Positions 1 through 16,146 of a stretch of DNA of 64,000 bases are shown here, in pieces. The stretch's first letter is position 1. Every line of letters begins with the position of its first letter. Made by a program: the position numbers and the translations under genes. This DNA is from Vibrio penaeicida (GTDB taxonomy: Bacteria > Pseudomonadota > Gammaproteobacteria > Enterobacterales > Vibrionaceae). Below the pieces are notes generated by a model. It searched no databases. It was not told the DNA's origin and saw only the letters and a list, made by a program, of their open reading frames with translations. The stretch spans positions 1,736,001 through 1,800,000 of the forward strand of contig NZ_AP025145.1 in NCBI RefSeq assembly GCF_019977755.1. The letters are read 5' to 3'.

Positions 1-1067
1 GCAAGCGTAATTCGTTGGCGAGTCCGCTCGTGGCGTTCACAAATAGAAGGAAAAAGCGGCAGTGTTGCATCCACCAGCCTTTCCATAACACGTTCGGATA
101 GCTGACTTCCCAACACTATGCTTTCTGGCTCAAATAAGTTTTCAAGGATGTTAATGGCAAATCTTAAGCGTTGACCGGATTCATCAATCCAACGTTGAAC
201 CACTTCATCATGCTCCCAATGTTCATCAATAAATGCAGGAAGCTGAAGATCTGAACCAGAATAATTCAGCATGGTTTTTAGCGCTTGTAGCGACAAGTGA
301 GTTTCAATGTAATCTGTCGAACCTGAATTGTGCCAATGAATTCGACCAATTTCTCCGGCATTACTCCATGCCCCTTTATAAGGCTGGTTGTTGGTAATAA
401 TACCTGCCCCCAAACCGTTACCAATATAGAGGTAGATAAAATTATCCAGCCTGTCTCCACGGCAGCTAAAACTGTGGCTAATAGCGGCAGAGGTTGCATC
501 GTTTTCCAAATAAACCGGATAAGCCAGCTTTTCACTCAATTTGTGCGTTAAATCCAGCTTGCCCCACGCTTGCCAAGCATTAGCAACTGGGTGGTGCTCC
601 GTGTCATCTTTGAGCAGGGTCGCAACGGCCACCCCCACTCCGATGAGCAACTGGCGAGAATTCGGTACCATATCGAGCAACCTGTTTACCACTCTATCAA
701 GTTGGCTTATCACGTAATCAGGCTCTAGGCTTGTTAGCTCTGCTTGGTAATCTGCCAGCAAATTTAGGTTGAGGTCCACTAAACTTGCATTCACAAACCC
801 CTGTTCAATCTGTAATCCAATAGACAAACACGAAGCAGGGTTCACTTCTAGCAACGTTTGGGGCTGCCCTCGCTTACCTTGCACCTTACCTACTTCTAGG
901 ACATAGCCTGTTTGAATAAGCTCTCGAACCAAGTTGGTGATAGTTTGGTTCCTCAGCCCAGACTGCTGTGCCACGCTCACACGGCTAACCCGAGGGTGCT
1001 GTCGAATAATTTCGAATACCACACTCAGATTTGAACGCTTGGTATGTTCGTGGTTCTTACCTTTCAC
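1..1067 (-). CDS. ROK-family transcriptional repressor, partial (C-terminus beyond left edge)
   Basis: About 355 residues are visible and the frame is open to the left edge, so the C-terminus is missing. An N-terminal winged helix-turn-helix (about residues 8-58, with VSVAQQSGLRNQTITNLVREL) is followed by an actin-like ROK sugar-binding domain with YIGNGLGAG and ENDATSAA motifs. I chose the GTG at 1065-1067 because AAGGA lies 6-8 bases upstream and translation leads straight into the HTH; no ATG fits. The zinc motif CxCGxxGCxE typical of NagC/Mlc is not present at the expected place (the sequence after GEIGRIHWH lacks the cysteines). It is divergent from the ABC operon starting at 1442 and probably represses it in response to an imported sugar or sugar phosphate. 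Family is certain, ligand unknown. Confidence 0.9.
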   Translation of the reverse strand, partial: MKGKNHEHTKRSNLSVVFEIIRQHPRVSRVSVAQQSGLRNQTITNLVRELIQTGYVLEVGKVQGKRGQPQTLLEVNPASCLSIGLQIEQGFVNASLVDLNLNLLADYQAELTSLEPDYVISQLDRVVNRLLDMVPNSRQLLIGVGVAVATLLKDDTEHHPVANAWQAWGKLDLTHKLSEKLAYPVYLENDATSAAISHSFSCRGDRLDNFIYLYIGNGLGAGIITNNQPYKGAWSNAGEIGRIHWHNSGSTDYIETHLSLQALKTMLNYSGSDLQLPAFIDEHWEHDEVVQRWIDESGQRLRFAINILENLFEPESIVLGSQLSERVMERLVDATLPLFPSICERHERTRQRITL

Positions 1068-1441
1068 CTTGACTTCCTTGTTGAACTCTTACTTTCGAAA
1101 GTTTGTCTGTGCCTAAAATCAGCGATTCCTTAGGTTACCTCTGATCGGAGGAGAAACAAGTTAACAAAATCCCACAATTGGAAAGCCGTTCGGTTTAATG
1201 ATGAAAATATCCCCAAGTGCCCCCAATAATCCTTCCACCCTAACTCATTGAATTCACAAAAACTACGAAATAAATTCAAATTCAGATCACAATTAATTGA
1301 TCAAAAAATATACAACAATGACCTTTCTATCATTTAATTCCATTCAATGGATTTATTTACTCAACTCGAAAATGTGCGATTCCAACGCATCCGCAAATTC
1401 AGGTTGACTCGGGTCGACAGACCCTAACACATGGAGGTGAT
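1068..1441. promoter_or_regulatory. Divergent intergenic region between ROK repressor and ABC operon
   Basis: This 374-base gap must hold the promoters of both the repressor and the ABC operon. Visible signals are a 12-base perfect palindrome ACTTTCGAAAGT at 1091-1102, just upstream of the repressor start, resembling the TTTCG/CGAAA core of NagC-type operators, and a small hairpin GGGTC-gaca-GACCC at 1411-1424 directly before the strong ribosome binding site GGAGGTGAT of the binding-protein gene. No convincing -35/-10 pair could be assigned by eye. Confidence 0.5.
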
Positions 1442-2713
1442 ATGAATAAGTTCTTACCACTTTTAGCGCTGAGTATATTGGCGGGTAGTTATACGCTTAA
1501 TGCTCAAGCTGAAGAAGTCACAGTGTTTTGCAGCTCATCTGGCGTGGAGTTACAGCTCTGCAAAGATGGAACGAACGCATGGGCAAAAGAAACCGGCAAC
1601 AAGGTGACTGTTGTTACCTTGCCAGCAAGTTGGGATGACGTATTGCCTCTTTATCAACAACTGCTGACGGCTAAATCTAAAGATATAGATGTACTTATCT
1701 TGGATACCATTTGGCCTGGGGCGTTGAAGTCTCACCTTCTCGATATGAATGAGTACGCCAAACCAGAGAGTATTTCTCAACATTTCAAAGCCGCGGTAGA
1801 AGGCACAACGGTTAACGGAAAAGTCCTTTCTATTCCTTGGTACATGGACACTGGCATGCTTTTCTATCGGAAAGATTTGCTCGAAAAATATGGTTACAAC
1901 CCACCCCAAACCTATCAAGAACTCACAAAAATTGCGCAAGACGTTCAAGCGAAAGAGAGAAAATCAGGAAATCCAGATTTTTGGGGATACGCCTGGCAAG
2001 GTCGGTCATATGAGGGCTTAACGTGCAATGCGATTGAGTGGTTTGGCTCGACCGATGGCGGCACAATTATTGATGAAAATGGCGACATTACCGTCAATAC
2101 TTCTGCCAACCGCGAAATTCTCAAAACAGCGTCAAGTTGGATAAATACAATCAGCCCACCGGGCACGCTAAACTACGACGAAGAGTCGTCTCGTGGTGTT
2201 TTCCAAAATGGGAACGCCCTTTTTCACCGTAACTGGTCGTATGTATGGAGCCTTGCCAATTCGGAAGATTCCGTCATCAAAGACAAAGTAGGTGTGGTTG
2301 CACTGCCGAAAGGCACCCCTGATGGCATCCACGCTGGCTGTTACGGCACCGCACTGCTTGGGGTATCCAAGTATTCTCGCTCTCCTGAAACCGCAGTGAG
2401 CTTAGTGAACTACCTGACGGGCATGAGCGAGCAAAAACGCCGCGCAATTGAAGCCAGTTACAGCCCCACTCTGCCTGCGCTGTACAACGATTCTGATGTT
2501 TTAAAAGCAAATCCGTTTTTATCCGACATGCAGACATCGTTCGCCAATGTGGTTGCCCGCCCTTCACAGGTAACTGGCGATCAGTACAGCCGAGTGAGCA
2601 ACACCATTTGGAAACAAGTTCATAAAGCACTGTCTGGAGAGGTCAGTGCCGATAAAGCGCTTGAACAAATGGAGTCGGAGCTGAAAAGGCTGAAAAAACG
2701 CGGTAAGTGGTAA
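1442..2713 (+). CDS. ABC sugar transporter, periplasmic solute-binding protein (CUT1 type)
   Basis: 423 residues with an N-terminal Sec signal peptide (charged MNK, hydrophobic LLALSILAG, cleavage probably after NAQA). The body is a family-1 extracellular solute-binding protein, resembling the trehalose/maltose ThuE/MalE group: ALPKGTPDG and HRNWSYVWSL regions are typical hinge/ligand parts, and length fits the family (about 420). The ATG follows a near-perfect GGAGGTGAT ribosome binding site. It captures the substrate in the periplasm for the permeases at 7039-8792. It is the first gene of the operon and is followed by a strong hairpin, which would let it be made in excess of the downstream genes. 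The substrate cannot be read from sequence; neighbours point to an amino-sugar glycoside. Confidence 0.88.
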   Translation: MNKFLPLLALSILAGSYTLNAQAEEVTVFCSSSGVELQLCKDGTNAWAKETGNKVTVVTLPASWDDVLPLYQQLLTAKSKDIDVLILDTIWPGALKSHLLDMNEYAKPESISQHFKAAVEGTTVNGKVLSIPWYMDTGMLFYRKDLLEKYGYNPPQTYQELTKIAQDVQAKERKSGNPDFWGYAWQGRSYEGLTCNAIEWFGSTDGGTIIDENGDITVNTSANREILKTASSWINTISPPGTLNYDEESSRGVFQNGNALFHRNWSYVWSLANSEDSVIKDKVGVVALPKGTPDGIHAGCYGTALLGVSKYSRSPETAVSLVNYLTGMSEQKRRAIEASYSPTLPALYNDSDVLKANPFLSDMQTSFANVVARPSQVTGDQYSRVSNTIWKQVHKALSGEVSADKALEQMESELKRLKKRGKW

Positions 2714-2727
2714 ACCATGCCGTGCTT

Positions 2728-2764
2728 TGGCAGGCAGTAAAGCGAATTGGGTTACTGCCTGCCA
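2728..2764 (+). terminator. Intercistronic hairpin after the binding-protein gene (attenuator/stabiliser)
   Basis: GGCAGGCAGTAA at 2729-2740 pairs perfectly with TTACTGCCTGCC at 2752-2763, extended by one T:A pair, giving a 13-bp stem with an 11-base loop, followed by ATACTTTTAC. The T tract is short, so partial termination or protection of the upstream mRNA from 3' decay is more likely than complete termination, as known after malE-type genes. Confidence 0.7.
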
Positions 2765-2822
2765 TACTTTTACTGGATTCAGATGATTTCGTTTCGAACA
2801 TAGATAAGGACGACAAGCTGTT

Positions 2823-3962
2823 ATGTTGAACTCACCGATTAGACTTGGGCTGATTGGGCTAGGAGAAGCGGCGCAAAGCCTTCATTTGCCGACTTTGTTT
2901 CACCATCCCGACAAATTTTGCGTCACCGCAGTATTCGATATCAGCCCAACCTTGGTCAACGAAGTTTGCCAACGCTACCACGTGAAAAGCGGCTATCACA
3001 CCGTTGAAGAAATCGTAAAGGATGACGCTGTTGATGCGGTCATAATCATGTCGCCTGATCCACTTCACTTCGAACATACCAAACTCGCCATCGCCCACAA
3101 CAAATCCGTTCTATTGGAGAAACCCAGCTGTTTGTTACCACGACATGTTGAAGAACTCATCAAACTGGAAAAACGGCATCAGGTTTCTGTCACCGTTGGT
3201 TACATGCGTGTCTATGCTAAAGCCTTTTCATTGGCTCAAGAAAAACTGGATGAACTGGGAGATATAAAAAGCGTGCGCGTTAGGGATTTACAACGTGAAG
3301 GTGACCACTTCCTTCCGCAAGTCTCTGATTTGTACTACCCCGACGATCACGATAAGCGACAAATCGAACACGCTAAAGAAGCCGAACAAAAGCAAAGAGA
3401 GGAGTTACTCGGCAGTCGAGCACACTCCAACTTATTGTGGAAAGCTTATCGCGTGCTAACAGGCGCAGCCATTCACAATTTGGCCGCACTGCGACATCTC
3501 ATTGACTCGCCTAAAAGAGTGGTGAGTGCGTTTGCTAATTCCAACGGTGAACACATTTCCATGACGATGGATTACGGATCCTTTTTTGCCACTTATGAAA
3601 TTTTAATCGATAACATTCCTCGCGTGGATGCCAGTATCGAACTGACCTCTGATACCAAGAGGCTCAAAATCAATTACCCAACGCCTTACATTCGAAACTT
3701 GCCTACCACTCTTGAGTTTCAAAGTGGAGAGGGGCACCACCCTAGCGAAACTCATGGTCCATTTTACCAAGATCAATTTAACCTTGAGCTTCTGTATTGG
3801 CACCAAACCCTTACCCAAAACGCGCCGGTTTTAACGGGTCTTAAAGTGTCTCAGAAGGATCTTAATTTGGTCATGCAAGCCATCGACTCTATCGCAATCA
3901 ATCTTGGAATCAACGATATCCCTAGCGATACAGCAACTAATGTGATGGGAGAACACGAATGA
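2823..3962 (+). CDS. Gfo/Idh/MocA-family NAD(P)-dependent oxidoreductase
   Basis: 379 residues. The N-terminal Rossmann fold starts RLGLIGLGEAAQSLHLP (dinucleotide-binding GLGEAA), and the family EKP motif is seen in LLEKPSCLLP at about residue 99; VGYMRVYAKAF follows. The C-terminal alpha/beta domain carries the substrate site. Such enzymes oxidise a sugar or inositol hydroxyl, often at C3 of a glycoside, as in ThuB or levoglucosan dehydrogenase. Its stop overlaps the next start in ATGA, so it is translationally coupled to the IolE-like protein, and the pair probably acts in sequence. Family sure; substrate inferred only. Confidence 0.87.
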   Translation: MLNSPIRLGLIGLGEAAQSLHLPTLFHHPDKFCVTAVFDISPTLVNEVCQRYHVKSGYHTVEEIVKDDAVDAVIIMSPDPLHFEHTKLAIAHNKSVLLEKPSCLLPRHVEELIKLEKRHQVSVTVGYMRVYAKAFSLAQEKLDELGDIKSVRVRDLQREGDHFLPQVSDLYYPDDHDKRQIEHAKEAEQKQREELLGSRAHSNLLWKAYRVLTGAAIHNLAALRHLIDSPKRVVSAFANSNGEHISMTMDYGSFFATYEILIDNIPRVDASIELTSDTKRLKINYPTPYIRNLPTTLEFQSGEGHHPSETHGPFYQDQFNLELLYWHQTLTQNAPVLTGLKVSQKDLNLVMQAIDSIAINLGINDIPSDTATNVMGEHE

Positions 3963-4846
3963 CTAGCCAGATAACGCTCGCCACCTGTCCTTGCTCTTGG
4001 GGAGTTTGGTACCCAAAGGATCACCAACAACCGAGTTGGCAAAAGTTTCTGGATGAAGCCAACTTTTGCGGATACCGCACCATTGAACTGGGACCTTACG
4101 GCTACCTTCCGACGAATATTCGGGAGCTCAAGTACGAACTGGAAGCCCACAACTTGAACGTTTGCGGCGCCGCACATATGTCGGATCTCATAGTCCCTAA
4201 CGCACTAAATACCATTCGATCGGATATAAGCAATATTTGCCCTACCCTGAAAGAATTAAATGCGCGCTATTTTGTGTTTATGGACGGCGACAGCCTTTAT
4301 AAACACCCAAGCGATCGCAACCTCAACCTTACGGATTGGAAGCACATCATTAAGGTGATTTCTGAATCAGCAAAAATTGTAAAGGAAGAGTATGGATTGG
4401 ATTATGTGTTTCACCCCCATGTTTCTACCTGCATTGAAAACGAACATCAAATTATCCGGCTGCTGAACGATACCCACCCCGACTACGTGAATCTCTGTTT
4501 CGACACAGGGCATCATCTATACACGGGTGGAGTACCCGAAGATTTCATTAAAGAATTCGGTTCGCGAATTCGCTACTACCACTTGAAAGACATGAATTCC
4601 GCTATTCGAGAGAAAGTGAAGCAGAAAAACCTCAGTGATGATGACGCTTTTGAACTTGGGGTGATGGTGCCGCTGGGTAAAGGCAACGTTAACTTCAATG
4701 CAATTAAAGCAGAATTGGACAGGCAAAACTTTCGCGGTTACGCGGTGATCGAACAAGACATTTACCCTGATATTCACAATATGGCACTCACGCATGCCAA
4801 AAGTAACCTCGCTTACATCAAACAACTTGGAATGGGGGTGTCATGA
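3959..4846 (+). CDS. IolE-like TIM-barrel sugar isomerase/epimerase/lyase family protein
   Basis: 295 residues of the xylose-isomerase-like (AP endonuclease 2) TIM-barrel family. The start TCPCSWGVWYP resembles inosose dehydratase IolE. Likely metal ligands are spread over the barrel: H and E around FHPHVSTCIENE, the DTGHH motif, HLKD, and E in VIEQDIYPD. Members carry out isomerisation, epimerisation, dehydration, or cleavage of 3-keto-glycosides. It overlaps its neighbours by ATGA at both ends, so it is tightly coupled to the dehydrogenase before and the ROK kinase after. Possible roles: a lyase/hydratase acting on the oxidised glycoside, or a true inosose dehydratase; the amino-sugar context favours the former. 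Confidence 0.82.
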   Translation: MTSQITLATCPCSWGVWYPKDHQQPSWQKFLDEANFCGYRTIELGPYGYLPTNIRELKYELEAHNLNVCGAAHMSDLIVPNALNTIRSDISNICPTLKELNARYFVFMDGDSLYKHPSDRNLNLTDWKHIIKVISESAKIVKEEYGLDYVFHPHVSTCIENEHQIIRLLNDTHPDYVNLCFDTGHHLYTGGVPEDFIKEFGSRIRYYHLKDMNSAIREKVKQKNLSDDDAFELGVMVPLGKGNVNFNAIKAELDRQNFRGYAVIEQDIYPDIHNMALTHAKSNLAYIKQLGMGVS

Positions 4847-5790
4847 CCCCCAACGCACTGAATACATACAACGTCCAATCCGCCAATGCCTTTGTGGGTA
4901 TCGACATTGGTGGCACAAAAATGGCGTCGGCACTGGTCGATATCAACACCGGTCACATCCTGTGTGAAACTCAAGTTGCCACGCAAAAACAACGCCCAAC
5001 AAAAGACATCATTACTGATATTCACAAACTGCTGTCTTACCACCTTGAGTTTGCGAACATCAAAGATATTCCGGTAAAAGGGTGCGGCATTGCCTTTCCA
5101 GAATTGGTGAACAATTCAGGAGAAATCGTCAGTGATTGGAATTTCGATCTTCGTTCACTAAGCCACTCTGATTTTCCCCTTAACAATGTGTTGTTTGAAA
5201 GTGATGTGCGAGTAGCTGGTCTGGCTGAAGCAAAACTGGGAGCGGGCAAGCCATACCAATCGTTCGTCTATGTGTCTCTGGGGACTGGGCTGGCATACAC
5301 CTTATTTAACAATGGGGTGCCTTGGCGAGGGAAAAACGGCTACGCCATTCATTTTGCGAGTAGTGCCCTCACTGGGTGTACAGCAGATATGAAGCCGCTG
5401 AATTATCTGCCTGAAGCGCTGGTATCTGGCGCGGGGTTACTAGATTGCTGGAACATGAGCCACCCCGCGCAGCGCTATCACGATTTACCTGAACTGTTAT
5501 TACAAGCGGAAATGGGCGCATCGAAAGAGCGCCAATACATTAAACTCGCTGGGGAGGTTTTGGGCAGTTTACTGGCACAAATGGTCAATATGTTAGACCC
5601 AGAAGCCATCATTTTTGGTGGTGGATTAGGTTGTGCTCAAGGCTTATACCATCACTGTATTGAAGCTACTCTGCGCGACCGAATATGGGCAGAAGATTGC
5701 AAAACCATTCCTGTTCATAAAGCGTATTTTGCAAGTAAAGCAGGGACGATTGGCGCGGCGCTTGCCGCATCTAAAATGGCGAAAGGTTAG
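4843..5790 (+). CDS. ROK-family sugar kinase
   Basis: 315 residues. The phosphate-binding motif GIDIGGTKMASALVD lies at about residues 19-33; the catalytic-base region is ESDVRVAGLAEAKLGAG, and LGTGLAYTL and IFGGGLG are further ATP/sugar-fold motifs. No N-terminal HTH is present, so this is an enzyme, not a repressor. The CxCGxxGC zinc motif of most ROK kinases is absent (only LTGCTADM is seen), which marks a divergent subgroup. It probably phosphorylates a free hexose or hexosamine at O6 in the cytoplasm, producing the substrate for the AgaI-like enzyme at 8796. The start overlaps the preceding stop (ATGA). Confidence 0.85.
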   Translation: MTPNALNTYNVQSANAFVGIDIGGTKMASALVDINTGHILCETQVATQKQRPTKDIITDIHKLLSYHLEFANIKDIPVKGCGIAFPELVNNSGEIVSDWNFDLRSLSHSDFPLNNVLFESDVRVAGLAEAKLGAGKPYQSFVYVSLGTGLAYTLFNNGVPWRGKNGYAIHFASSALTGCTADMKPLNYLPEALVSGAGLLDCWNMSHPAQRYHDLPELLLQAEMGASKERQYIKLAGEVLGSLLAQMVNMLDPEAIIFGGGLGCAQGLYHHCIEATLRDRIWAEDCKTIPVHKAYFASKAGTIGAALAASKMAKG

Positions 5791-5905
5791 GTATTTAAGT
5801 TCGCAAAAATAGGTGTGTTTTTAATCTGCGAACAAGGAAAGCTTAAACAAACACGATCTCAATAATATCTGGATATGTAGACTCTGGGAAAAAGGAAGAC
5901 AACCC
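5791..5905 (+). other. Short intergenic gap with hairpin within the ABC operon
   Basis: GTTCGCA at 5799-5805 pairs with TGCGAAC at 5827-5833. The loop is 21 bases. This is too weak to call a terminator; it may mark an RNA-processing point or a weak promoter boundary before the ATPase gene, whose ribosome binding site AAGGAAG is clear. Confidence 0.35.
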
Positions 5906-7027
5906 ATGGAAGTTTTGTCTTTACATCAGGTAAACAAAACATACAGCAAGACCCCTGTTTTGCGAGACATCAACCTATCGATTCATCAGGGCGAATTCAT
6001 TGTGTTCGTTGGTCAATCTGGTTGTGGAAAATCGACCCTTCTGCGCCTTATCGCGGGGCTTGATCTTCAAACATCTGGTGATGTTCGAATAGATGGCACA
6101 AACGTCAATGACGTTGCACCCGGGCAGCGTGGGTTAGCCATGGTGTTTCAGTCCTATGCGTTGTACCCACACATGAACGTTTGGGACAACATGGCATTTG
6201 CCTTAAAAACAGCTCGGCTTCCGAAACATGACATTTCAGAACGTGTCACTAAAGCCGCCGATATCCTTAAACTGGGATCGCTACTCGATAGAAAACCCGC
6301 TCAACTATCAGGCGGACAAAGACAGCGTGTCGCCATTGGCAGAGCGATAGTTCGTGAGCCTAAAATCTTCTTATTTGATGAACCCCTAAGTAACCTAGAC
6401 GCCGAACTTCGCGTAGACATGCGGGTCGAAATCGCCACACTCCATAAAAAACTCAACGCCACTACCATTTACGTCACACACGATCAAGTTGAAGCAATGA
6501 CGTTAGCCGACAAGATCGTTGTGCTCAATAACGGTGTCATTGAACAATTCGGATCACCGCTTGAGTTATACAACCACCCTATAAATCAATTTGTGGCAGG
6601 GTTTATTGGTTCACCCAAAATGAACTTTATTGAAGGAGATATGGAGGCTGACGGCTTTCATTTCCATGGTTACCACCTCGATATGGTGGATTCCAAAATT
6701 ATGGGTAGAAAAATAACGCTTGGCATTCGTCCAAAAGACCTCTCTCTAACAAGCAACCCAAAGAAAGCCGATCTAAAAGCCAAAATTACTCACACCGAAA
6801 TATTGGGTGATGAAAGTTACGTGTATTGCAACGTTGGGTCACGCATGAAACTTGTCGTAACACTGGATGGGCAGCAGCATCTTGAAGCTAACCAAGAGGT
6901 GTATCTGGTTTTTAACTGGGATCATGTGCATTGCTTCGATACCCGTGGCATCAATATCGATTACCAAAATAGCGATCGCCCACAATGCGATAGCGAATCC
7001 ACTCAGCCGCGAAATACGGAAGAATAG
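5906..7027 (+). CDS. ABC sugar transporter ATP-binding protein (MalK/UgpC type)
   Basis: 373 residues. Walker A GQSGCGKST at residues 36-44, Q-loop MVFQSYALYPHM, signature LSGGQRQR beginning at residue 134, Walker B IFLFDEPLSNLD, and H-loop VTHDQ. The C-terminal 130 residues form the OB-fold (TOBE) regulatory domain typical of MalK/UgpC/MsmK, with GIRPKDLSL. It powers sugar import through the two permeases immediately downstream. The C-terminus of about 20 residues is hydrophilic and not family-typical. Confidence 0.93.
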   Translation: MEVLSLHQVNKTYSKTPVLRDINLSIHQGEFIVFVGQSGCGKSTLLRLIAGLDLQTSGDVRIDGTNVNDVAPGQRGLAMVFQSYALYPHMNVWDNMAFALKTARLPKHDISERVTKAADILKLGSLLDRKPAQLSGGQRQRVAIGRAIVREPKIFLFDEPLSNLDAELRVDMRVEIATLHKKLNATTIYVTHDQVEAMTLADKIVVLNNGVIEQFGSPLELYNHPINQFVAGFIGSPKMNFIEGDMEADGFHFHGYHLDMVDSKIMGRKITLGIRPKDLSLTSNPKKADLKAKITHTEILGDESYVYCNVGSRMKLVVTLDGQQHLEANQEVYLVFNWDHVHCFDTRGINIDYQNSDRPQCDSESTQPRNTEE

Positions 7028-7038
7028 GTTGAGCCCGT

Positions 7039-7959
7039 ATGAATAAAGAAAGTAAACCATCCGTCGGGTTCCGGCTCAACCAACAAAAAGTCTACGAAGC
7101 GTGGCTCTATATTCTCCCTATGGCGCTTGTGCTGGCGGTGGTCGCCCTTTATCCATTGCTCAAGAATTTTTACTTCTCGTTTACGGATGCTTCGTTAATG
7201 GAGCCCGAACTTGCGAGTTGGATAGGGTTAGAAAATTACACTTACTTGCTCACTGATTCATCGTGGTGGAATTCGGTTTGGAACACGCTTTATTTTGCGG
7301 TGGTGTCTGTGGCACTGGAAACCGTCATTGGGCTTGGTATCGCTCTAATTTTGAATGCGAACTTGCCTACCAAAGGCATTATGCGTGCGGTCGTGTTGGT
7401 GCCTTGGGCTATCCCGACCATCGTCTCTGCAAGAATGTGGGAGTGGATGTTCCACGATCAATATGGCGTGATAAACCAAATTGGCATGTCGATTGGCATA
7501 CTGAGTGAAAAGATCGCATGGACAGCGGACCCACAATGGTCGATGGCTGCGATTATCTTCGTCGATGTTTGGAAAACCACCCCCTTTATGACGCTGTTGA
7601 TCTTAGCTGGTTTGCAAATGCTCCCAAAAGACATCTACGAGGTGGCGAAAGTGGATAATGTCCCTGCTTGGCGAGTCTTTTGGCACATCACGTTACCCCT
7701 GATCAAGCCAGCCATTTTGGTGGCGGTAGTATTCCGATTGTTGGATGCGCTGCGTATGTTCGATTTGGCGTATGTGTTAACAGGAAGCAGTGAGTCAACG
7801 ATCACTATGTCGATATTTGCGCGTAAGCAGTTGGTTGATTTTCAAGACATGGGGTATGGGGCAGCGGCTTCAACTCTGTTGTTCTTCATTGTTGCCTTAG
7901 TGACGATCGGGTATTTGTACTTATCCCGCAATAGCTTAATGTCTAAGGAGTCAAGATGA
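7039..7959 (+). CDS. ABC sugar transporter permease 1 (MalF type)
   Basis: 306 residues, six predicted membrane helices (first around ILPMALVLAVVALYPLL). The EAA loop is EVAKVDNVPAWRVFWHITLP, which docks with the ATPase. The size and arrangement fit CUT1 MalF/ThuF-like inner-membrane permeases. Its stop TGA overlaps the ATG of permease 2 (ATGA). Confidence 0.92.
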   Translation: MNKESKPSVGFRLNQQKVYEAWLYILPMALVLAVVALYPLLKNFYFSFTDASLMEPELASWIGLENYTYLLTDSSWWNSVWNTLYFAVVSVALETVIGLGIALILNANLPTKGIMRAVVLVPWAIPTIVSARMWEWMFHDQYGVINQIGMSIGILSEKIAWTADPQWSMAAIIFVDVWKTTPFMTLLILAGLQMLPKDIYEVAKVDNVPAWRVFWHITLPLIKPAILVAVVFRLLDALRMFDLAYVLTGSSESTITMSIFARKQLVDFQDMGYGAAASTLLFFIVALVTIGYLYLSRNSLMSKESR

Positions 7960-8792
7960 AGAACTCCACCAGAAATCGCCTCAGCAAAGGGCTGTTCTAC
8001 ATTTTGGTCGCCATTATTGCGCTGTATACCCTATTTCCATTCTATTGGTCTATCGTATCCTCGTTTAAGCAAGGGGCTGATTTATTCAAAGTCGAGTTTT
8101 TCCCAAGTATCCAGTGGGACAACTACATCAGCGTCCTCAGCAATGGTACGTTTTTACGCAATATTCTTAACTCGGTTATTGTCGCGACCGCGGTTGTTGC
8201 TGTGTCGCTATTCCTTTCTGTCACCGCGTCTTACGCTCTGGGACGAGTCAACTTTAAAGGAAGAACCACCATTTTGATGGCGATACTGAGTGTATCGATG
8301 TTTCCTCAAGTGGTGATTCTGTCAGGGCTGCTGGGCATGATAAACCTGCTTGAACTGTACAACACACTCTGGGCGTTGATCCTTGCCTATATGATCTTCA
8401 CCCTGCCCTTTACGGTTTGGGTCATCACCACTTTTATGAAGGAGCTGCCCCAAGAATTAGAAGACGCCGCAAGAATGGATGGCTGCTCTACCTTTCGAAT
8501 CATTACCCACGTGTTCTTCCCAATACTGGGGCCGGCTTTGGTTAGCACAGGTTTACTGGCATTCATTGCGGCATGGAACGAATTCTTGTTCGCCCTAACT
8601 TTTGTTCTCAATGATGAAATGCGCACGGTTCCTGTAGCCATTGCCCTCATTTCTGGCGCTAGCCGTTATGAATTACCATTTGGTGCCATTATGGCCGCTT
8701 CGGTCATTGTGACGGTTCCACTCGTTGTATTGGTTTTAGTGTTCCAACGAAAAATTGTATCGGGGCTGACAGCAGGTGCGATTAAAGGATAA
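7956..8792 (+). CDS. ABC sugar transporter permease 2 (MalG type)
   Basis: 278 residues, six membrane helices. The EAA motif is seen as ELEDAARMDGCSTFRIITHV, and AFIAAWNEFLFAL is characteristic of MalG-like permeases. Translation is coupled to the preceding permease through a 4-base overlap; ribosome binding site AAGGAG precedes the ATG. It forms the inner-membrane heterodimer with the 7039-7959 product. Confidence 0.93.
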   Translation: MKNSTRNRLSKGLFYILVAIIALYTLFPFYWSIVSSFKQGADLFKVEFFPSIQWDNYISVLSNGTFLRNILNSVIVATAVVAVSLFLSVTASYALGRVNFKGRTTILMAILSVSMFPQVVILSGLLGMINLLELYNTLWALILAYMIFTLPFTVWVITTFMKELPQELEDAARMDGCSTFRIITHVFFPILGPALVSTGLLAFIAAWNEFLFALTFVLNDEMRTVPVAIALISGASRYELPFGAIMAASVIVTVPLVVLVLVFQRKIVSGLTAGAIKG

Positions 8793-8795
8793 TTT

Positions 8796-9500
8796 ATGAA
8801 CGTCACTCAATTGAAAAACCACCAAGAAGTCTCGGCTTACCTCGCCCGTATGCTCACTAGCCAAATTCAAGTTACACCAGATTCAAGGATCATACTCGCT
8901 TCTGGTGGTACACCATCTTTAGCGTATGAAATTACAGGGGAACAGCTACTAGGAGTCGATACCTCCCGCGTCACCATCATAAAACTGGACGAATGGGTTG
9001 GGCTACCCGAAACCAGCGGCAGCAGTTGCGAGTATCAACTGACCCATGAAGTGATAAAACCATGGGGGATTGAACCACACCACTATATTTCTTTTAATGG
9101 GTCCGCGAGTGATATTTTAAGTGAAGCGCTGCGCGTTAAAAGCCAGCTAACCGCATACCAACCTGCACACCTTTGCGTTTTGGGGATAGGGCTTAACGGA
9201 CATATTGGATTCTTAGAGCCTTCCCCTTCTTTGCCGCATCGTTCAAGCGTTGTACCACTGCATGCTATGTCGAAAAACCACCCTATGGTCAAAAATCAGT
9301 ACGAGGTATCGCTCGGTATCACCATTGGAATTGGCGACATTATGGAGTGTGAAAAAGTCGTCTTAGTAGCAACGGGGGAACACAAGCAACAAATTCTCGC
9401 TCGATTGCTGGAGAGTGACATTTCCACATCACTGCCTGCTAGCCTATTGAAACTGCATCCCAACGTTGAATTGATAGTAGATGATAGTGCGATGTTTTAA
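8796..9500 (+). CDS. AgaI-like amino-sugar-6-phosphate deaminase/isomerase (NagB superfamily)
   Basis: 234 residues of the NagB/6-phosphogluconolactonase fold. LASGGTPSLAYE binds phosphate; KLDEWVGLP carries the conserved aspartate; CVLGIGLNGHIGFLEP carries the catalytic histidine and glutamate. The Asn-Gly-His in place of the Asp-Gly-His of GlcN6P deaminase, together with STSLPASLLKLH near the end, matches E. coli AgaI better than NagB. It would convert galactosamine-6-P (or glucosamine-6-P) to a ketohexose phosphate plus ammonia. The start lies 3 bases after the permease stop with AAGGA before it, so it is the last gene of this operon. E. coli agaI sits in the aga locus; here it is about 10 kb away. 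Confidence 0.82.
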   Translation: MNVTQLKNHQEVSAYLARMLTSQIQVTPDSRIILASGGTPSLAYEITGEQLLGVDTSRVTIIKLDEWVGLPETSGSSCEYQLTHEVIKPWGIEPHHYISFNGSASDILSEALRVKSQLTAYQPAHLCVLGIGLNGHIGFLEPSPSLPHRSSVVPLHAMSKNHPMVKNQYEVSLGITIGIGDIMECEKVVLVATGEHKQQILARLLESDISTSLPASLLKLHPNVELIVDDSAMF

Positions 9501-9611: not shown

Positions 9612-11804
9612 CTACAATCTCAAATATTCGCTATACAGATAGTCAATTTGGTTTCTATCATCATTTTTAGAGATTGTGATGACGCAACTGAATTCCGCAC
9701 CGTTCATATCATCAAATCGAGGTTTTCTTGGATCTACCCCTAGCTCAGCAATGGTGTATGACGCTTGATCTGCATTAGGAATCAACTGACCATTCATTCG
9801 CCACTGATAAGACTCAACTTTTTCATCGTCCTTCAATTCACTGTCAGCACTTACTGAGAGAGTATTACCCACAGCAGGTGTTCCAGAAATATGCAACAGA
9901 GGGCGAGCTTGGCGGAATGCTTTACTGCTGAGTTTAGGCGCATCAATTGTTTGATGGTTAATAGCCGAAAGGGTTTCTTCAATAACAGGTTCATTATTAC
10001 CATCCAAGATAATATCACCATTTCCGTCTCTGGCGTACCTGACATAGTCGCCTATCACATCTGAATTACCTCGTAGATCCACATCACTAATGGTATTTTC
10101 GAAAGACAGATTGTTGACGATTTCACCAGTCCAAGGAACGCGAACACTAGTACACAAACGAACCGAGGAGACACGATTGTGATTAATCAGCATGTCGAAA
10201 CGTCGCTGTTCATTTTCTCGATCATTTGTATTCCCTAGGTCAAACCCAGAGATAATAATTCCTGACACCATCCCCAAGTGACCTTCGACGGTGTTGTCAT
10301 AAATACTAATGGAATGCGATATATTCTCAGACGCAGCTCCTATGCCAAAGGTATTTGCAGCGGCTGAATGCCCCACCGGAAGCCCCCCTGAGAATAGTAA
10401 ATTATGTCGGCAAGTACCTTGACGACCACTCAAGCTCACACCAAAATATTTCCCCCCTATTTTACAATTCTCAACCAGATAGTGATTCCCTTCGATGGCT
10501 ATAGAGCCCTTCAGGCTAGTTGACTCGCTAGATTGCAAGCATACACAATCATGTATCCAGAGATCATAACAACGACCACTCAACCCATCGTCTTCTTCAC
10601 TGAATTGTATGCAATCCGCACCTCCACCTAGTGGTGCATCAAAATAACTGAATGCGATCTCCATAGGTCGTTGTGCGCCAGCTTCTCTGTTAATTGATTT
10701 GCCATAAACTCCGTCTCCATACACATTCTTTATACGTAAAAAATCAATTTTAGTCCCTTTTGACCTAAGTAGCCTTATTCCTGACGAGTTAGCATGATCA
10801 TTGTTCCCAGACACAGTTAGTCGGAGTAACGCTAATTCATTCGTGGTATAAATATACAGAGGAACATTTCCATTTAGATTAGTACCTGATAAATCTGAAT
10901 TCTCAGAATCAAACTCAATATCCTTAATTTCTGTGTACCCACTGTCTGTAATGACTTTGTTGTTTGGGTATTTCCTAACTTCGACTAGATATAGGCGGTC
11001 ATTGCTATTATTTTTTGCTAACGCCGTATTAGTTGTTAGGATCATCTTAGGTTTATTTAAGAATGGGTCACCAAAAGCACCAATCGTTTGATTTTTGCTT
11101 ATTATGATACCAAATTCGAATATATCACCTCGCCTATAGAATATTTGTCCATATGACGTGTATGGGATTGGGATTGAGATTTCTGATTCCAGTATAGGTT
11201 TGTGTGGCTGTTTCCCGTCATTGCCTGTATCCCCGCTTTGAACAATGAATAGTGCATCCGTTGTGTCATCATAGACGGATACTTCCAGTTTAGTAGTTTG
11301 AGTCAGACCATTTCGTATTCTGGTTACTTCGATAATACGTGATTCCGTCGTCACAATTTGGGAGGAATCCTGAACACTTAACACACCATCGATTAGCTGA
11401 AACCCCGCTGAATCTCCAGATAAATTCCATAGATCTCCGAACTGGTTTTTGCCTATACGACCTAGAACGTAACCGTTAGGTGCATCGATCCCGACTCGCA
11501 GACATTCAAAAAAAAGATATTCACGATCACGCCCTTCCAAGGTGTCAAAAGGAGGCGGTAAATTATCCATATCAAGCTCAGGAATTAAGCTTCGCTGACT
11601 ACTAGCGCTTGTATCTCTTTTCACACTATATAAGTGTTCCCACAAAGGATTAGATATCGGCACCCCCGGAGAAATATCTGCCGTTGCTAAATAATGATGA
11701 ATAAAGCCGTCTTCAATAATTCGAACTTCTGAGCCCTTGATATAATCTAAATCTATATCGTGAACTGTTATCGCGTAGTCCCTTTTCTTTAACTCTATGG
11801 TCAT
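9612..11804 (-). CDS. Right-handed parallel beta-helix protein with N-terminal CBM5/12-like segment and C-terminal Ig-like domain
   Basis: 730 residues and no recognisable signal peptide (start MTIELKKRDYAI). Residues about 17-58 show the Y..G..V......Y.A......P......W pattern of short carbohydrate-binding modules (YIKGSEVR ... YLATADISPG ... PLWEHL). Residues about 300-600 are rich in Asn/Asp-spaced short strands (DCIQFSEEDD, YLVENCKIGG, LINHNRVSSV) like beta-helix lyases or phage tailspikes. The last 90 residues (YQWRMNGQLIPNADQASYTI) resemble an Ig-like/PKD surface domain. A ribosome binding site AGGGAAG precedes the ATG. Substrate and activity are unknown: a polysaccharide lyase/hydrolase, an adhesin or a tailspike-like fibre are possible. 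It lies between AT-rich flanks, suggesting transfer. Confidence 0.7.
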   Translation of the reverse strand: MTIELKKRDYAITVHDIDLDYIKGSEVRIIEDGFIHHYLATADISPGVPISNPLWEHLYSVKRDTSASSQRSLIPELDMDNLPPPFDTLEGRDREYLFFECLRVGIDAPNGYVLGRIGKNQFGDLWNLSGDSAGFQLIDGVLSVQDSSQIVTTESRIIEVTRIRNGLTQTTKLEVSVYDDTTDALFIVQSGDTGNDGKQPHKPILESEISIPIPYTSYGQIFYRRGDIFEFGIIISKNQTIGAFGDPFLNKPKMILTTNTALAKNNSNDRLYLVEVRKYPNNKVITDSGYTEIKDIEFDSENSDLSGTNLNGNVPLYIYTTNELALLRLTVSGNNDHANSSGIRLLRSKGTKIDFLRIKNVYGDGVYGKSINREAGAQRPMEIAFSYFDAPLGGGADCIQFSEEDDGLSGRCYDLWIHDCVCLQSSESTSLKGSIAIEGNHYLVENCKIGGKYFGVSLSGRQGTCRHNLLFSGGLPVGHSAAANTFGIGAASENISHSISIYDNTVEGHLGMVSGIIISGFDLGNTNDRENEQRRFDMLINHNRVSSVRLCTSVRVPWTGEIVNNLSFENTISDVDLRGNSDVIGDYVRYARDGNGDIILDGNNEPVIEETLSAINHQTIDAPKLSSKAFRQARPLLHISGTPAVGNTLSVSADSELKDDEKVESYQWRMNGQLIPNADQASYTIAELGVDPRKPRFDDMNGAEFSCVITISKNDDRNQIDYLYSEYLRL

Positions 11805-13890: not shown

Positions 13891-16146
13891 ATGAAAAGCT
13901 TCACCTTGCGCCCTTTATTCGTTTCCACAGTGTTGGCAACGATGACACTCTCCGCTGCTCATGCCGCGACCACAACTTGGCCGGGTCAAGAAGTGGGTGT
14001 ATTAACCTATAACCTGACGGCCGACAAGCTGATTAAAACCGGTCCGATTCGCTTAGGGCAGATGGATTTAAATATCTCCGATGCAGAGCTTGATCAAATT
14101 CGAGCCAGCGCCCCCGATCAAGCTACAGCAGACAAGCTTGTCGAAATTGCGATCCTGAAGCGAAAGGTATGGCGAGCACCTTATTCTTTCGTCATCCCAA
14201 ATGAGCGACCACATTGGGCAATGGCCATGGCGCACGCTGCACAGCTTTTCAAAAACGTGACAGGGATTGATGACCCTTACCACAGCGCAAATCTATATGC
14301 AGCCAAAACGCTGCAAGAAAGTGCAGTTGGCGCCGACTATGACGCCAAAACCTTTACTTATCCGACGCCTCCCACCTATAAAGACCAAGATCCAAATCAC
14401 TCCAATTATGGTATCTGGAGTACGCTACATAACGGCAGAACCAAACACGATGGTTTCTTCCAATTAGAAGGACATATGTATTCTGCTTACGGCGAAATGA
14501 TGAGGATGTTCCCTAATCGTTTCTACAAAGGCATCAAACCAGATTCGGTTTACAAAGCAGTCGAACCTTATGAGATGACCTCGCCTATCTATAATGCGGT
14601 GTTTAAACCTGAACAAGGAAAAAACAGTTTTGTTCCAAGCGCCATCGGTGCATCGTACTACAACATTTTTGCTTACTACATTTTGGCGCGATCTTCAGAT
14701 AACTTCGGCGAATTTGTCGTTGAATCAAAAGATCCACTGGCATTAACTAAGCTGATTTCTGTCGGTTACAACCGAGGACTGAGCCCTAACAGCATGGCGT
14801 TGAATCCTTTAAAACCAGATGTAAGAGCGCACTGCGCGTCTTTGACTGTCATTGACGAATGCTTCGACCCAGAAAACCAAGGTGGTTTCGGAACCAGTTA
14901 CCTCTATCAAGTGCCGTACAAAGCAGTAGAACTTAAAGACGTCGCCGAAAATAACGGTCCTGGCTACCCAGGTTACTACACCAGTCAAATTGACTGGGCA
15001 ACGGTAAGCAGCTATTTGGATGCGCTTGGACCACTCTACACACCTGAAGAAATTACCTCGGCTAAAGCTTCTGCAAAAACAGCATTTGATGCGGTTGCGA
15101 AACAAGGAAGCATAGATTTTGCGAACCAATTTGGCGGTGTTCTTGATGCTATTTTGTTGTCACTTCCAGTGGACACGCCTTGGACACAGTTATGTAAAGC
15201 TGATGGCGGCGCGTATGACGCATTCAACCGTGATGGCACCTTTAAAGGTGTTGAGCACAGCTACCGATGCAAGCCAGAGACTGTGAGCAAGCCACTTATT
15301 TTAGGTACTCGCGTTGGCGACAGAGCACCAGTTGCGAGAGCCGGTGATGACCAGATCATTAGCCACGAAAAAACCGTTACACTTGATGGCTCTAAATCTT
15401 TTGACCCAGACGGCGACTCCATCACTTATTCATGGAAACAAGTTAGCGGCGCACCAGTAACTTTAACAGCACAAGGTTCTCAAGCATCGTTCTCTGCCCC
15501 TTCCGTCACGGCGACAAGCGTGCACAACTTCCAACTTACGGTCACAGGTAATGGAAAAACAGGCACCGACGAAGTGGTAGTAACATTACGACCTAACCAA
15601 GCACCAGTTATTGCTTACAAACCCGTGAAAGATATCTTTATCGGCGATACGGTCACAATTGATGCAAGTAAAACCATTGATCCTGATGGAGACACTGTCA
15701 GCTACCGCTGGGCTGGGTTACCTGATGGTTCCGTGGTAAACACAACCACACCAACAATCAGCTTCAAAGTGCCAGCTGCTACTACCTACACAATTGAATT
15801 AACTGCCACCGATTCGCTAAATAATACAGCGGTAGCGGCGATTCCTGTTGTCGTTGAACTGGTAGACGCAGGCTCCACATGGGATCCAAACAAGATTTAC
15901 CAAAAAGGGGATATCGTTCGTCACCGCAATAAAGAATTTACCGCGCAGTGGCATACTCAAAACGAAGAACCAGGGGTTGCGGAAGTGTGGTTGCAATCTT
16001 ACGGGTCTGAAGTGACTGAGTGGGATCCAAAACGCATCTATGGCAAAGGTGATCGAGTGCTATACAACGGCGCAACTTGGGAAGCGAAATGGTATGCCAA
16101 TTTTGAGAATGTTCCCGGTATCGATGGCGCTTGGAACAAAGTATAA
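13891..16146 (+). CDS. Secreted lysozyme-superfamily-like protein with two PKD domains and two CBM5/12 modules
   Basis: 751 residues. Signal peptide MKSFTLRPLF...AAHA with cleavage near residue 26. The N-terminal core (about 30-465) is not a family I recognise outright, but has, in order, KTLQESAVGADY (Glu143), DGFFQLEG (Gln191) and SVGYNRGLSP (Tyr293-Asn294), which mirror the E, GxxQ and YNxG motifs of GH23-type lytic transglycosylases/chitinases. Two PKD-type repeats follow (RAPVARAGDDQ..., then QAPVIAYKPV..., each with FDPDGD or IDPDGD). The C-terminus has two tandem CBM5/12-like modules (WDPNKIYQKGDIV and WDPKRIYGKGDRV, each ending in W), which bind chitin or related polymers. It probably acts outside the cell on an amino-sugar polymer. 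Modules are confident, catalytic assignment tentative. Confidence 0.8.
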   Translation: MKSFTLRPLFVSTVLATMTLSAAHAATTTWPGQEVGVLTYNLTADKLIKTGPIRLGQMDLNISDAELDQIRASAPDQATADKLVEIAILKRKVWRAPYSFVIPNERPHWAMAMAHAAQLFKNVTGIDDPYHSANLYAAKTLQESAVGADYDAKTFTYPTPPTYKDQDPNHSNYGIWSTLHNGRTKHDGFFQLEGHMYSAYGEMMRMFPNRFYKGIKPDSVYKAVEPYEMTSPIYNAVFKPEQGKNSFVPSAIGASYYNIFAYYILARSSDNFGEFVVESKDPLALTKLISVGYNRGLSPNSMALNPLKPDVRAHCASLTVIDECFDPENQGGFGTSYLYQVPYKAVELKDVAENNGPGYPGYYTSQIDWATVSSYLDALGPLYTPEEITSAKASAKTAFDAVAKQGSIDFANQFGGVLDAILLSLPVDTPWTQLCKADGGAYDAFNRDGTFKGVEHSYRCKPETVSKPLILGTRVGDRAPVARAGDDQIISHEKTVTLDGSKSFDPDGDSITYSWKQVSGAPVTLTAQGSQASFSAPSVTATSVHNFQLTVTGNGKTGTDEVVVTLRPNQAPVIAYKPVKDIFIGDTVTIDASKTIDPDGDTVSYRWAGLPDGSVVNTTTPTISFKVPAATTYTIELTATDSLNNTAVAAIPVVVELVDAGSTWDPNKIYQKGDIVRHRNKEFTAQWHTQNEEPGVAEVWLQSYGSEVTEWDPKRIYGKGDRVLYNGATWEAKWYANFENVPGIDGAWNKV

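What the first reader, a model, noticed from the sequence alone, without database searches (positions are those of the whole stretch)
1442..9500. ABC operon for an amino-sugar glycoside with a possible hydrolase-free (3-keto) deglycosylation route
The operon combines a CUT1 ABC importer, a Gfo/Idh/MocA dehydrogenase, a coupled IolE-like TIM-barrel protein, a ROK kinase and an AgaI-like amino-sugar-6-phosphate deaminase, but no glycoside hydrolase and no deacetylase. Seen: order, overlaps and motifs. Known: ThuB and the levoglucosan pathway use Gfo oxidation at C3 followed by TIM-barrel action. Inference: the imported glycoside is oxidised, cleaved by elimination or hydrolysis, then the freed hexosamine is phosphorylated and deaminated. 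This combination is not one I know as a described pathway.
Basis: partly seen in the sequence, partly recalled or inferred. Interest (0 to 1): 0.72.

Follow-up and report, generated by a model that had tools for sequence, protein, structure and literature searches.

The report
Hydrolase-free amino-sugar glycoside operon (predicted)
This is a conserved set of eight bacterial genes that probably imports a sugar-linked amino sugar and splits it by a redox reaction instead of an ordinary hydrolase; the parts are of known kinds, the combination looks new, and the actual food molecule is unknown.

Summary
The operon is real and as described, in a Vibrio penaeicida-like genome. Eight co-directional genes (1442-9500) encode a CUT1 binding protein, a Gfo/Idh/MocA oxidoreductase, an IolE-like TIM barrel, a divergent ROK kinase, a MalK/UgpC-type ATPase, two permeases and an AgaI/NagB-family protein. 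A divergent NagC/Mlc-like ROK regulator lies upstream. None of the eight matches a glycoside hydrolase or deacetylase.

The set is not a chance neighbourhood: the same eight functions recur in Photobacterium, Shinella, Ensifer and relatives. Two branches of the NagB superfamily fill the deaminase slot. Gfo and TIM trees give the same groups. The binding protein is closest to trehalose/maltose-type binders. The TIM barrel keeps the HxH/D/H/E pattern of both IolE and the Agrobacterium 3-keto-glycoside eliminase. An iol cluster lies elsewhere in the genome.

Best reading (about 0.5): one Gfo and one TIM barrel oxidise, eliminate/hydrate and re-reduce an amino-sugar glycoside; kinase and deaminase follow. 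Carbon position, linkage and substrate are untested. One TIM and one Gfo, against two of each in published routes, and a Gfo without the usual catalytic Asp, are the main doubts. New variant of a known kind.

The parts
1..1067 (-). Divergent ROK-family transcriptional regulator (NagC/Mlc-like, 401 aa; its C-terminal end lies before the window start)
   Evidence: ORF L009:7862-9067 -, i.e. window about -138 to 1067; NagC model 103 bits, Mlc 98 bits, both below curated cut-offs; PF00480 110 bits; same gene beside the operon in L010, L011, L012 and in Photobacterium L093 at 46% identity
1068..1441 (.). Intergenic control region; block about 1268-1361 nearly unchanged in four Vibrio loci, with an imperfect inverted repeat AATTCCATT-C-AATGGATTT at 1336-1354
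   Evidence: alignment A6 of four loci; operator role inferred, not tested
1442..2713 (+). CUT1 ABC solute-binding protein, 423 aa
   Evidence: best solved relatives 6jb0 group (372 bits over about 380 aa), MalE3 6dtq, trehalose/maltose-binding 1eu8, SmoF 7nbz
2823..3962 (+). Gfo/Idh/MocA oxidoreductase, 379 aa
   Evidence: PF01408 84 bits; EKP Lys100 and His218 invariant in 35 sequences, Asp position of the DxxxH motif is Gly214 in all 35; in the best 60 of 86 PDB matches shown the best-scoring stretch is in the N-terminal 160 residues
3959..4846 (+). IolE-like TIM-barrel protein, 295 aa
   Evidence: PF01261 93 bits; TIGR04379 149 bits against cut-off 290; His152, His154, Asp182, His208, Glu265 invariant in 42 sequences
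4843..5790 (+). Divergent ROK-family sugar kinase, 315 aa
   Evidence: PF00480 109 bits; Asp121 invariant; Zn-cysteine motif and GE(I/L)GH Glu absent in the window protein (alignment A5)
5906..7027 (+). MalK/UgpC-type ABC ATPase, 373 aa
   Evidence: NF008653 475 bits, above its cut-off 432
7039..7959 (+). ABC permease 1 (MalF type), 306 aa
   Evidence: PF00528 74 bits
7956..8792 (+). ABC permease 2 (MalG type), 278 aa
   Evidence: PF00528 61 bits
8796..9500 (+). AgaI/NagB-family amino-sugar-6-phosphate deaminase/isomerase, 234 aa
   Evidence: PF01182 61 bits; AgaI model 186 bits against cut-off 271; Asp65, His136, Glu141 and Lys197 of the NagB pattern present

Best explanation
The operon is an inducible uptake and catabolic module for a glycoside (probably disaccharide-sized) that contains a 2-amino-2-deoxyhexose. 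The CUT1 importer brings it in intact. The Gfo enzyme oxidises a ring hydroxyl, most likely C3, with NAD(P)+. The IolE-like metal-dependent TIM barrel removes the acidified alpha proton, expels the group at C1 and adds water. The same Gfo enzyme reduces the freed keto-sugar, so that the sum is a redox-neutral hydrolysis without a glycoside hydrolase. The ROK kinase phosphorylates the free hexosamine and the AgaI/NagB-type enzyme turns the 6-phosphate into a ketose 6-phosphate plus ammonia. The divergent ROK regulator senses the sugar. Shown: gene content, order, conservation, family membership and residue patterns. Inferred: every chemical step, the carbon position, induction and the substrate.
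For: The same eight functions are in 11 of 11 module loci compared gene by gene (3 Vibrio, 1 Photobacterium, 7 Rhizobiaceae-like; picked because they hold the set; in one, L032, the NagB-like match is split over two frames). In an unpicked set, 12 of 297 genomes of one family have the Gfo: 4 have all eight, 1 is cut by the contig start, 4 have Gfo+TIM without such a kinase or deaminase, 3 have no TIM in the stretch read. In six plasmid loci opened around TIM hits an oxidoreductase gene is next to the TIM in all 6 (by annotation; L060 by weak match). Gfo and TIM trees give the same groups; rank correlation of pairwise distances Gfo-TIM 0.79, TIM-ROK kinase 0.90 over 8 loci. Outside the V. penaeicida group the deaminase slot is held by another branch of the NagB superfamily, 21-24% identical to the window protein, which argues for the hexosamine-6-phosphate step. 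The SBP matches trehalose/maltose-type binders over nearly its length. The TIM keeps the pattern reported for AtOGE: His132, catalytic His134, Asp163, His189, Glu233 (PMC10628242 section 8; A1). Precedents: LgdB2, a TIM-barrel hydratase suggested to be bifunctional (PMC7676230 passages); RgNanOx, one Gfo-class enzyme that oxidises and re-reduces with tightly bound NAD (PMC7535918 passages). In Sinorhizobium the nearest paralogous importer sits with a GH4 enzyme and a PfkB kinase; GH4 enzymes use the same oxidation-elimination chemistry (PMC7676230).
Against: One TIM and one Gfo, against two of each in the published routes. The residue pattern is shared with IolE, so it does not separate the two. 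The Gfo lacks the usual catalytic Asp (Gly214) and its substrate half matched no solved structure well. The non-Vibrio NagB-like proteins have Pro where NagB has Glu148, so they may not be ordinary deaminases. The kinase lacks sugar-binding and zinc motifs of standard ROK kinases. No NCBIfam profile passes its curated cut-off for the Gfo, TIM, kinase or deaminase. Distances of the SBP and of the deaminase follow the other genes less well (SBP-Gfo 0.57, SBP-deaminase 0.14, MalG-deaminase 0.18). Four plasmid loci with SBP relatives at 43-51% have no Gfo, TIM, kinase or deaminase match of this kind (L041, L043, L055, L056), and the Gfo+TIM pair also occurs with quite different transporters, so neither half is tied to the other. 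No structure could be predicted.
Confidence: 0.5

Rival explanations
1. Redox epimerisation: Gfo oxidises C3 of a rare amino sugar (free or as a glycoside), the TIM barrel inverts or shifts a neighbouring centre as D-tagatose/psicose 3-epimerases and IolI do, Gfo reduces it back, and the now ordinary hexosamine enters ROK kinase and deaminase. No glycosidic bond is cut.
For: The TIM superfamily holds epimerases and isomerases; the A3 profile finds D-tagatose 3-epimerase weakly (E 0.003). Needs only one Gfo and one TIM, as seen. Explains the absence of any hydrolase.
Against: The closest solved relatives by far are IolE proteins (135 and 128 bits against about 20 for the epimerases). The binding protein resembles disaccharide binders.
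Confidence: 0.15
2. Cyclitol or aminocyclitol route: Gfo is an inositol/inosamine-type dehydrogenase and the TIM barrel a true inosose dehydratase, working on an inositol or inosamine part of the imported compound (rhizopine-like, or a glucosaminyl-inositol), while kinase and deaminase handle the sugar part.
For: Best NCBIfam matches are IolG (78 bits) and IolE (149 bits), both under cut-off. MocA of rhizopine catabolism is a founder of the Gfo family (PMC7676230 passage); that MocC is IolE-like is recalled, not tested. A glucosaminyl-inositol would explain all eight genes. A TIM relative in another record sits beside an annotated iolG.
Against: An iol cluster with IolD and IolC above curated cut-offs, IolB below its cut-off, an aldolase and its own IolE-like TIM (192 bits) lies on contig C1, and no iolB, iolC, iolD or iolJ-type gene is in this operon. 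The Gfo match to IolG stops after the NAD domain (residues 6-152).
Confidence: 0.17
3. Neutral alpha-glycoside route: the substrate is a trehalose- or sucrose-like disaccharide, Gfo and TIM split it, the ROK enzyme is a glucokinase and the NagB relative is a lactonase or another sugar-phosphate enzyme.
For: SBP relatives bind neutral disaccharides by their names; the Shinella NagB-like protein is annotated 6-phosphogluconolactonase and lacks NagB's Glu148; the kinase's best NCBIfam match is the ROK glucokinase family (74 bits, under cut-off).
Against: The window protein has the NagB pattern including Glu141 and matches AgaI best (186 bits; pgl model only 47 bits). The Photobacterium protein scores 110 bits with nagB and 39 with pgl.
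Confidence: 0.13

Closest known systems
Levoglucosan pathway LgdA/LgdB1/LgdB2/LgdC of Bacillus smithii (PMC7676230; outline with abstract and passages seen)
   Same: Oxidoreductases plus TIM-barrel (sugar phosphate isomerase-annotated) enzymes that replace a glycoside hydrolase by oxidation, elimination, hydration and reduction
   Different: Two TIM barrels and two oxidoreductases there, one of each here; product is glucose; no hexosamine kinase or deaminase named in what I saw; the Gfo here scores 35 bits against a cut-off of 650 for levoglucosan dehydrogenase
Agrobacterium AtOGE/AtHYD O-glycoside operon (PMC10628242; outline with abstract, sections 7 and 8 read)
   Same: TIM barrel with metal ligands His/Asp/His/Glu and a catalytic HxH His, the pattern of His152, His154, Asp182, His208, Glu265 here
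   Different: Four-enzyme operon, shown there on 3-keto-phlorizin; AtOGE's sequence was not at hand for a comparison, and no PDB match was named as such an eliminase
GH4 glycosidases, and the Sinorhizobium GH4 + PfkB + importer locus
   Same: Same oxidation-elimination logic; same importer subfamily (SBP 48-49% identical)
   Different: One polypeptide does all steps (annotated 6-phospho-beta-glucosidase); here separate Gfo and TIM proteins and a ROK kinase plus deaminase
RgNanOx/YjhC (PMC7535918; abstract and other passages seen)
   Same: Single Gfo-class enzyme that oxidises, eliminates, hydrates and re-reduces with no net redox change, with several catalytic His of its own
   Different: Acts alone on an anhydro-sialic acid; no TIM barrel
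IolE/IolG inositol catabolism
   Same: Best family models for the TIM and for the Gfo N-domain
   Different: Below cut-offs; an iol cluster is present elsewhere in this genome; no other iol gene in this operon

Membership tests
CUT1 ABC sugar importer | SBP + MalK/UgpC ATPase with TOBE domain + two BPD permeases in one operon | tested here: met
   (NF008653 475 bits, cut-off 432; TOBE_2 and OB_MalK hits)
IolE inosose dehydratase | Score above curated cut-off of TIGR04379 | tested here: not met
   149 against 290; the iol-cluster TIM of the same genome also scores below, 192, so this is weak
IolE inosose dehydratase | Genes of the iol pathway beside it | tested here: not met
   none in the operon; the iol cluster is on contig C1
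3-keto-glycoside beta-eliminase TIM barrel (AtOGE type) | Metal ligands and catalytic His: H-x-H, D, H, E on strands 5 to 8 | tested here: met
   His152/His154/Asp182/His208/Glu265 invariant in 42 sequences, order compared by eye with PMC10628242 section 8; strands not modelled; shared with IolE, so not sufficient
Four-enzyme 3-keto glycoside pathway (Lgd, AtOGE, PUE) | Two TIM barrels and two oxidoreductases | tested here: not met
   one of each in the operon and in the two annotated Shinella loci; in the other module loci only relatives of the window proteins were sought
Glycoside 3-dehydrogenase (levoglucosan, BT2158, BT2159 models) | Score above curated cut-offs | tested here: not met
   35/650, 19/750 and 20/650 bits
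Gfo/Idh/MocA oxidoreductase | NAD domain and catalytic Lys (EKP), Asp and His (DxxxH) | tested here: inconclusive
   PF01408 met; Lys100 and His218 invariant, Asp position is Gly214 in all 35 sequences; triad definition from PMC7535918
AgaI/NagB deaminase | Catalytic Asp, His and Glu, phosphate-binding Lys | tested here: met
   Asp65, His136, Glu141, Lys197 in the window protein; roles recalled from E. coli NagB; the other branch lacks the Glu
AgaI/NagB deaminase | Score above a curated equivalog cut-off | tested here: not met
   AgaI 186/271, nagB 119/237
ROK sugar kinase | PF00480 above cut-off and catalytic Asp | tested here: met
   109 against 22.9 bits; Asp121 invariant
ROK sugar kinase | Zn-cysteine motif and GE(I/L)GH sugar-binding Glu | tested here: not met
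   absent in the window protein; the seven module kinases aligned (window included) read (F/Y)AIHF at the Glu site, and only the Photobacterium one keeps a CxxC pair; motifs recalled
Rhizopine (moc) catabolism | MocA and MocC orthologues | not tested
   no reference sequences at hand; papers only seen in a listing

The most novel reading that the evidence does not exclude
A split, redox-neutral two-protein counterpart of a GH4 glycosidase (one Gfo, one IolE-like TIM barrel) dedicated to an unphosphorylated amino-sugar glycoside, wired to a divergent hexosamine kinase and two interchangeable NagB-type deaminases: a new deglycosylation route for amino sugars spread between marine Vibrionaceae and soil Rhizobiaceae.
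Probability: 0.35. Interest if true: 0.7.

Novelty: new variant of a known kind. Interest (0 to 1): 0.5.

Why it matters
In the papers seen here, the multi-enzyme 3-keto routes act on glucosides and other neutral sugars; RgNanOx acts on an anhydro-sialic acid. A hydrolase-free route for amino-sugar glycosides would mean that a class of such compounds can be used by bacteria that glycoside-hydrolase annotation calls unable. It would also show the shortest multi-protein form of the pathway: one oxidoreductase and one TIM barrel. The module gives a defined, testable gene set with relatives in soil bacteria (Shinella, Ensifer).

Tried and rejected
Chance neighbourhood: rejected, since the set recurs in other genera with different order and strand. 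Sinorhizobium SMb21216-21221 glucosamine/galactosamine locus as the orthologue (a lead from memory and from PMC4961836 and PMC11378808): left as unproven, because the two S. meliloti loci with the nearest SBPs (48% and 43%) do not show a ROK kinase match beside them. Plain myo-inositol operon: weakened by the iol cluster elsewhere. 6-phosphogluconolactonase reading of the deaminase: weakened. An Rfam scan of 14 kb found nothing at gathering thresholds. Promoter-like sites were fewer than in shuffles (8 against 13.5) and terminator-like sites slightly more (12 against 8.2, sd 3.1). Structure prediction was off, so no fold search was run. Ten paper searches listed nothing that I recognised as this gene set; most hits were seen only as listings and the library lacks most subscription papers.

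Rows dropped before counts: the ORF filter of my scripts hid the Gfo of L040 (a longer minus-strand ORF covers it), so the Gfo tree has 17 of the 18 loci given, and the TIM tree 14; an unfiltered tblastn later showed which loci lack a TIM, kinase or deaminase match. The 11 loci were chosen because they hold the module. Plasmid loci opened around SBP hits: 3 of 7 have the module (L042, L057, L058), 4 do not (L041, L043, L055, L056). Plasmid loci opened around TIM hits: 0 of 6 have kinase and deaminase matches (L044, L045, L059, L060, L061, L062).

Full report
Observation. Pfam and NCBIfam confirm the families. The window belongs to a 6.8-Mb, three-contig genome, at C2:1736001-1800000. The same locus occurs in two named Vibrio penaeicida strains and in Vibrio sp. 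S9_S30 at 88-96% identity of the TIM protein, so this is a V. penaeicida-like Vibrio. Within the genus 4 of 227 genomes carry the Gfo at E <= 1e-40. Within the family 5 of 329 carry a TIM protein at 68% identity or more, while the other matches listed are at 33% or less. V. nigripulchritudo has homologues of Gfo and TIM at 78-79%; its neighbourhood was not seen.

Surroundings. Just upstream and divergent is a 401-aa ROK regulator, best matched by NagC and Mlc models below their cut-offs. The intergenic region has a block of about 95 bases that is nearly identical in four Vibrio loci, with an imperfect palindrome at 1336-1354. The Photobacterium intergenic region contains a similar AATGGATTTA element (by eye). 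Downstream, the 730-aa gene at 9612-11804 is not at that place in L011 and L012 and has no Pfam hit, so I take the operon to end at 9500.

Conservation. A search of 297 genomes of one alphaproteobacterial family (Rhizobiaceae, judged by named plasmid records that carry the same locus) found the Gfo in 12. I read 12 to 20 kb around each. All eight functions are in 4 (L031, L032, L033, L035). One is cut by its contig start but has permease and Gfo arranged as in L031 (L034). Four have Gfo and TIM without such a kinase or deaminase (L036-L039), three of them with a ROK regulator. Three have no TIM in the stretch (L029, L030, L040). Named plasmids of Shinella sp. HZN7, Shinella sp. WSD5-1 and Ensifer canadensis carry the full set. 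The Photobacterium locus L093 (its contig length, 2052529, is that of the longest contig of P0005, which a source names Photobacterium gaetbulicola) carries, divergent from the regulator, SBP, NagB-like, Gfo, TIM, kinase, ATPase and permeases in that order. Fifteen contig lengths are shared between 119 of the 120 listed Gfo entries and the 120 listed TIM entries, which suggests the pairing at large. In six plasmid loci opened around TIM hits an oxidoreductase gene lies next to the TIM in all 6, but none has kinase and deaminase matches. Trees of Gfo (17 rows) and TIM (14 rows) give the same groups; the full set is scattered over several groups (fewest changes 4 in the Gfo tree, 2 in the TIM tree). 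So Gfo+TIM is a cassette that travels as a pair, and the CUT1 + kinase + deaminase part seems to have been joined to it or lost from it more than once. SBP and deaminase distances follow the rest less well.

Deaminase slot. Outside the V. penaeicida group this slot is filled by a different branch of the NagB superfamily, 21-24% identical to the window protein. In V. penaeicida and S9_S30 an AgaI-like protein stands at the end of the operon instead. That one NagB-superfamily member replaces another is the best evidence that a hexosamine 6-phosphate is really made. A caution: the other branch has Pro where E. coli NagB has Glu148 (numbering recalled).

Substrate. The binding protein aligns over about 380 residues with the 6jb0 group (372 bits), then with MalE3, the trehalose/maltose-binding protein 1eu8 and the sulfoquinovosyl glycerol binder SmoF. 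That the 6jb0 group is a Thermus alpha-glycoside-binding protein is recalled; the PDB file names it only as an ABC substrate-binding protein, and a paper search did not find its description. In S. meliloti and S. medicae the closest paralogue seen (48-49%) is beside a GH4 enzyme and a PfkB kinase. The importer subfamily is thus linked to glycosides that are cleaved by redox chemistry in two different ways. The substrate itself cannot be named.

Mechanism. The TIM barrel keeps His152, His154, Asp182, His208 and Glu265 in 42 of 42 aligned sequences. AtOGE uses His132, Asp163, His189, a weakly bound Glu233 and catalytic His134 (PMC10628242 section 8). IolE 3cny shows the same pattern, so the pattern fits elimination next to a ketone in general. 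Published pathways use two TIM barrels and two oxidoreductases (PMC7676230; PMC10628242 section 7). One of each could suffice: LgdB2 was suggested to be bifunctional, and RgNanOx oxidises and re-reduces with one bound cofactor (PMC7535918 passages). The Gfo here has Lys100 and His218 but Gly214 at the Asp position of DxxxH in 35 of 35 sequences; in the 60 of 86 PDB matches shown, the best stretch stays in the N-terminal 160 residues. The kinase is a ROK member with Asp121 but without the zinc motif and the GE(I/L)GH Glu. These departures recur across the module and suggest an unusual substrate.

Inositol reading. The same genome has an iol cluster on contig C1: IolD (854 bits, cut-off 715), IolC domain (315, cut-off 300), an IolB-like protein (166, cut-off 205), a class II aldolase, Gfo proteins, a TIM protein (192 bits with IolE, cut-off 290) and a CUT2-type importer. 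That speaks against a second myo-inositol pathway, but not against an inositol-containing glycoside.

Literature. Ten searches of the open library listed the parts but nothing that I recognised as this combination. PMC9007349 (passages) describes 3-keto hydrolases of the DUF1080 family and a NagX route for glucosamine. PMC4961836 and PMC11378808 (passages) describe SMb21216-21221 genes for galactosamine or glucosamine; I could not show that they are orthologous. PMC10066097 (passages) reports further TIM barrels of unproven role in levoglucosan loci.

Verdict. New variant of a known kind; interest 0.5.

Noticed in passing
window 9612-11804 (-): 730-aa protein with no Pfam match; at the same place L012 has three tandem ORFs of 508-509 aa with alike starts, and L011 a 373-aa ORF: a variable spot beside the operon.
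   Followed up: partly
window 13891-16146 (+): 751-aa protein with PKD domains and CBM5/12 carbohydrate-binding modules.
   Followed up: no
L009:3960-4859 (-) and L009:5995-6783 (+), before the window: Two proteins with HExxH-type metalloprotease motifs by eye (HELGHNMGLYH and HELAHVFG) on either side of a 230-aa gene; the same three ORFs are in L010.
   Followed up: no
L093:11584-12390, L042:12245-13030, L058:12104-12904, L031, L033, L035: Branch of the NagB superfamily with Pro at the NagB Glu148 site (AFNPPG or AFNPAG); annotated 6-phosphogluconolactonase in Shinella.
   Followed up: partly
L056:7655-14331 and L041: Sinorhizobium GH4 + PfkB kinase + importer locus whose binding protein is the closest paralogue seen there; may be a phosphorylating version of the same logic.
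   Followed up: partly
L061 and L062: Klebsiella and Pantoea records carry a TIM barrel + Gfo pair behind a LacI regulator, TIM 33% identical to the window's, function unassigned.
   Followed up: no
L032:4945-5726: The NagB-like match lies in two pieces in different frames in this record, so the gene or the record may be broken there.
   Followed up: partly
window 1336-1354: Imperfect palindrome in the conserved intergenic block, candidate operator of the ROK regulator.
   Followed up: partly
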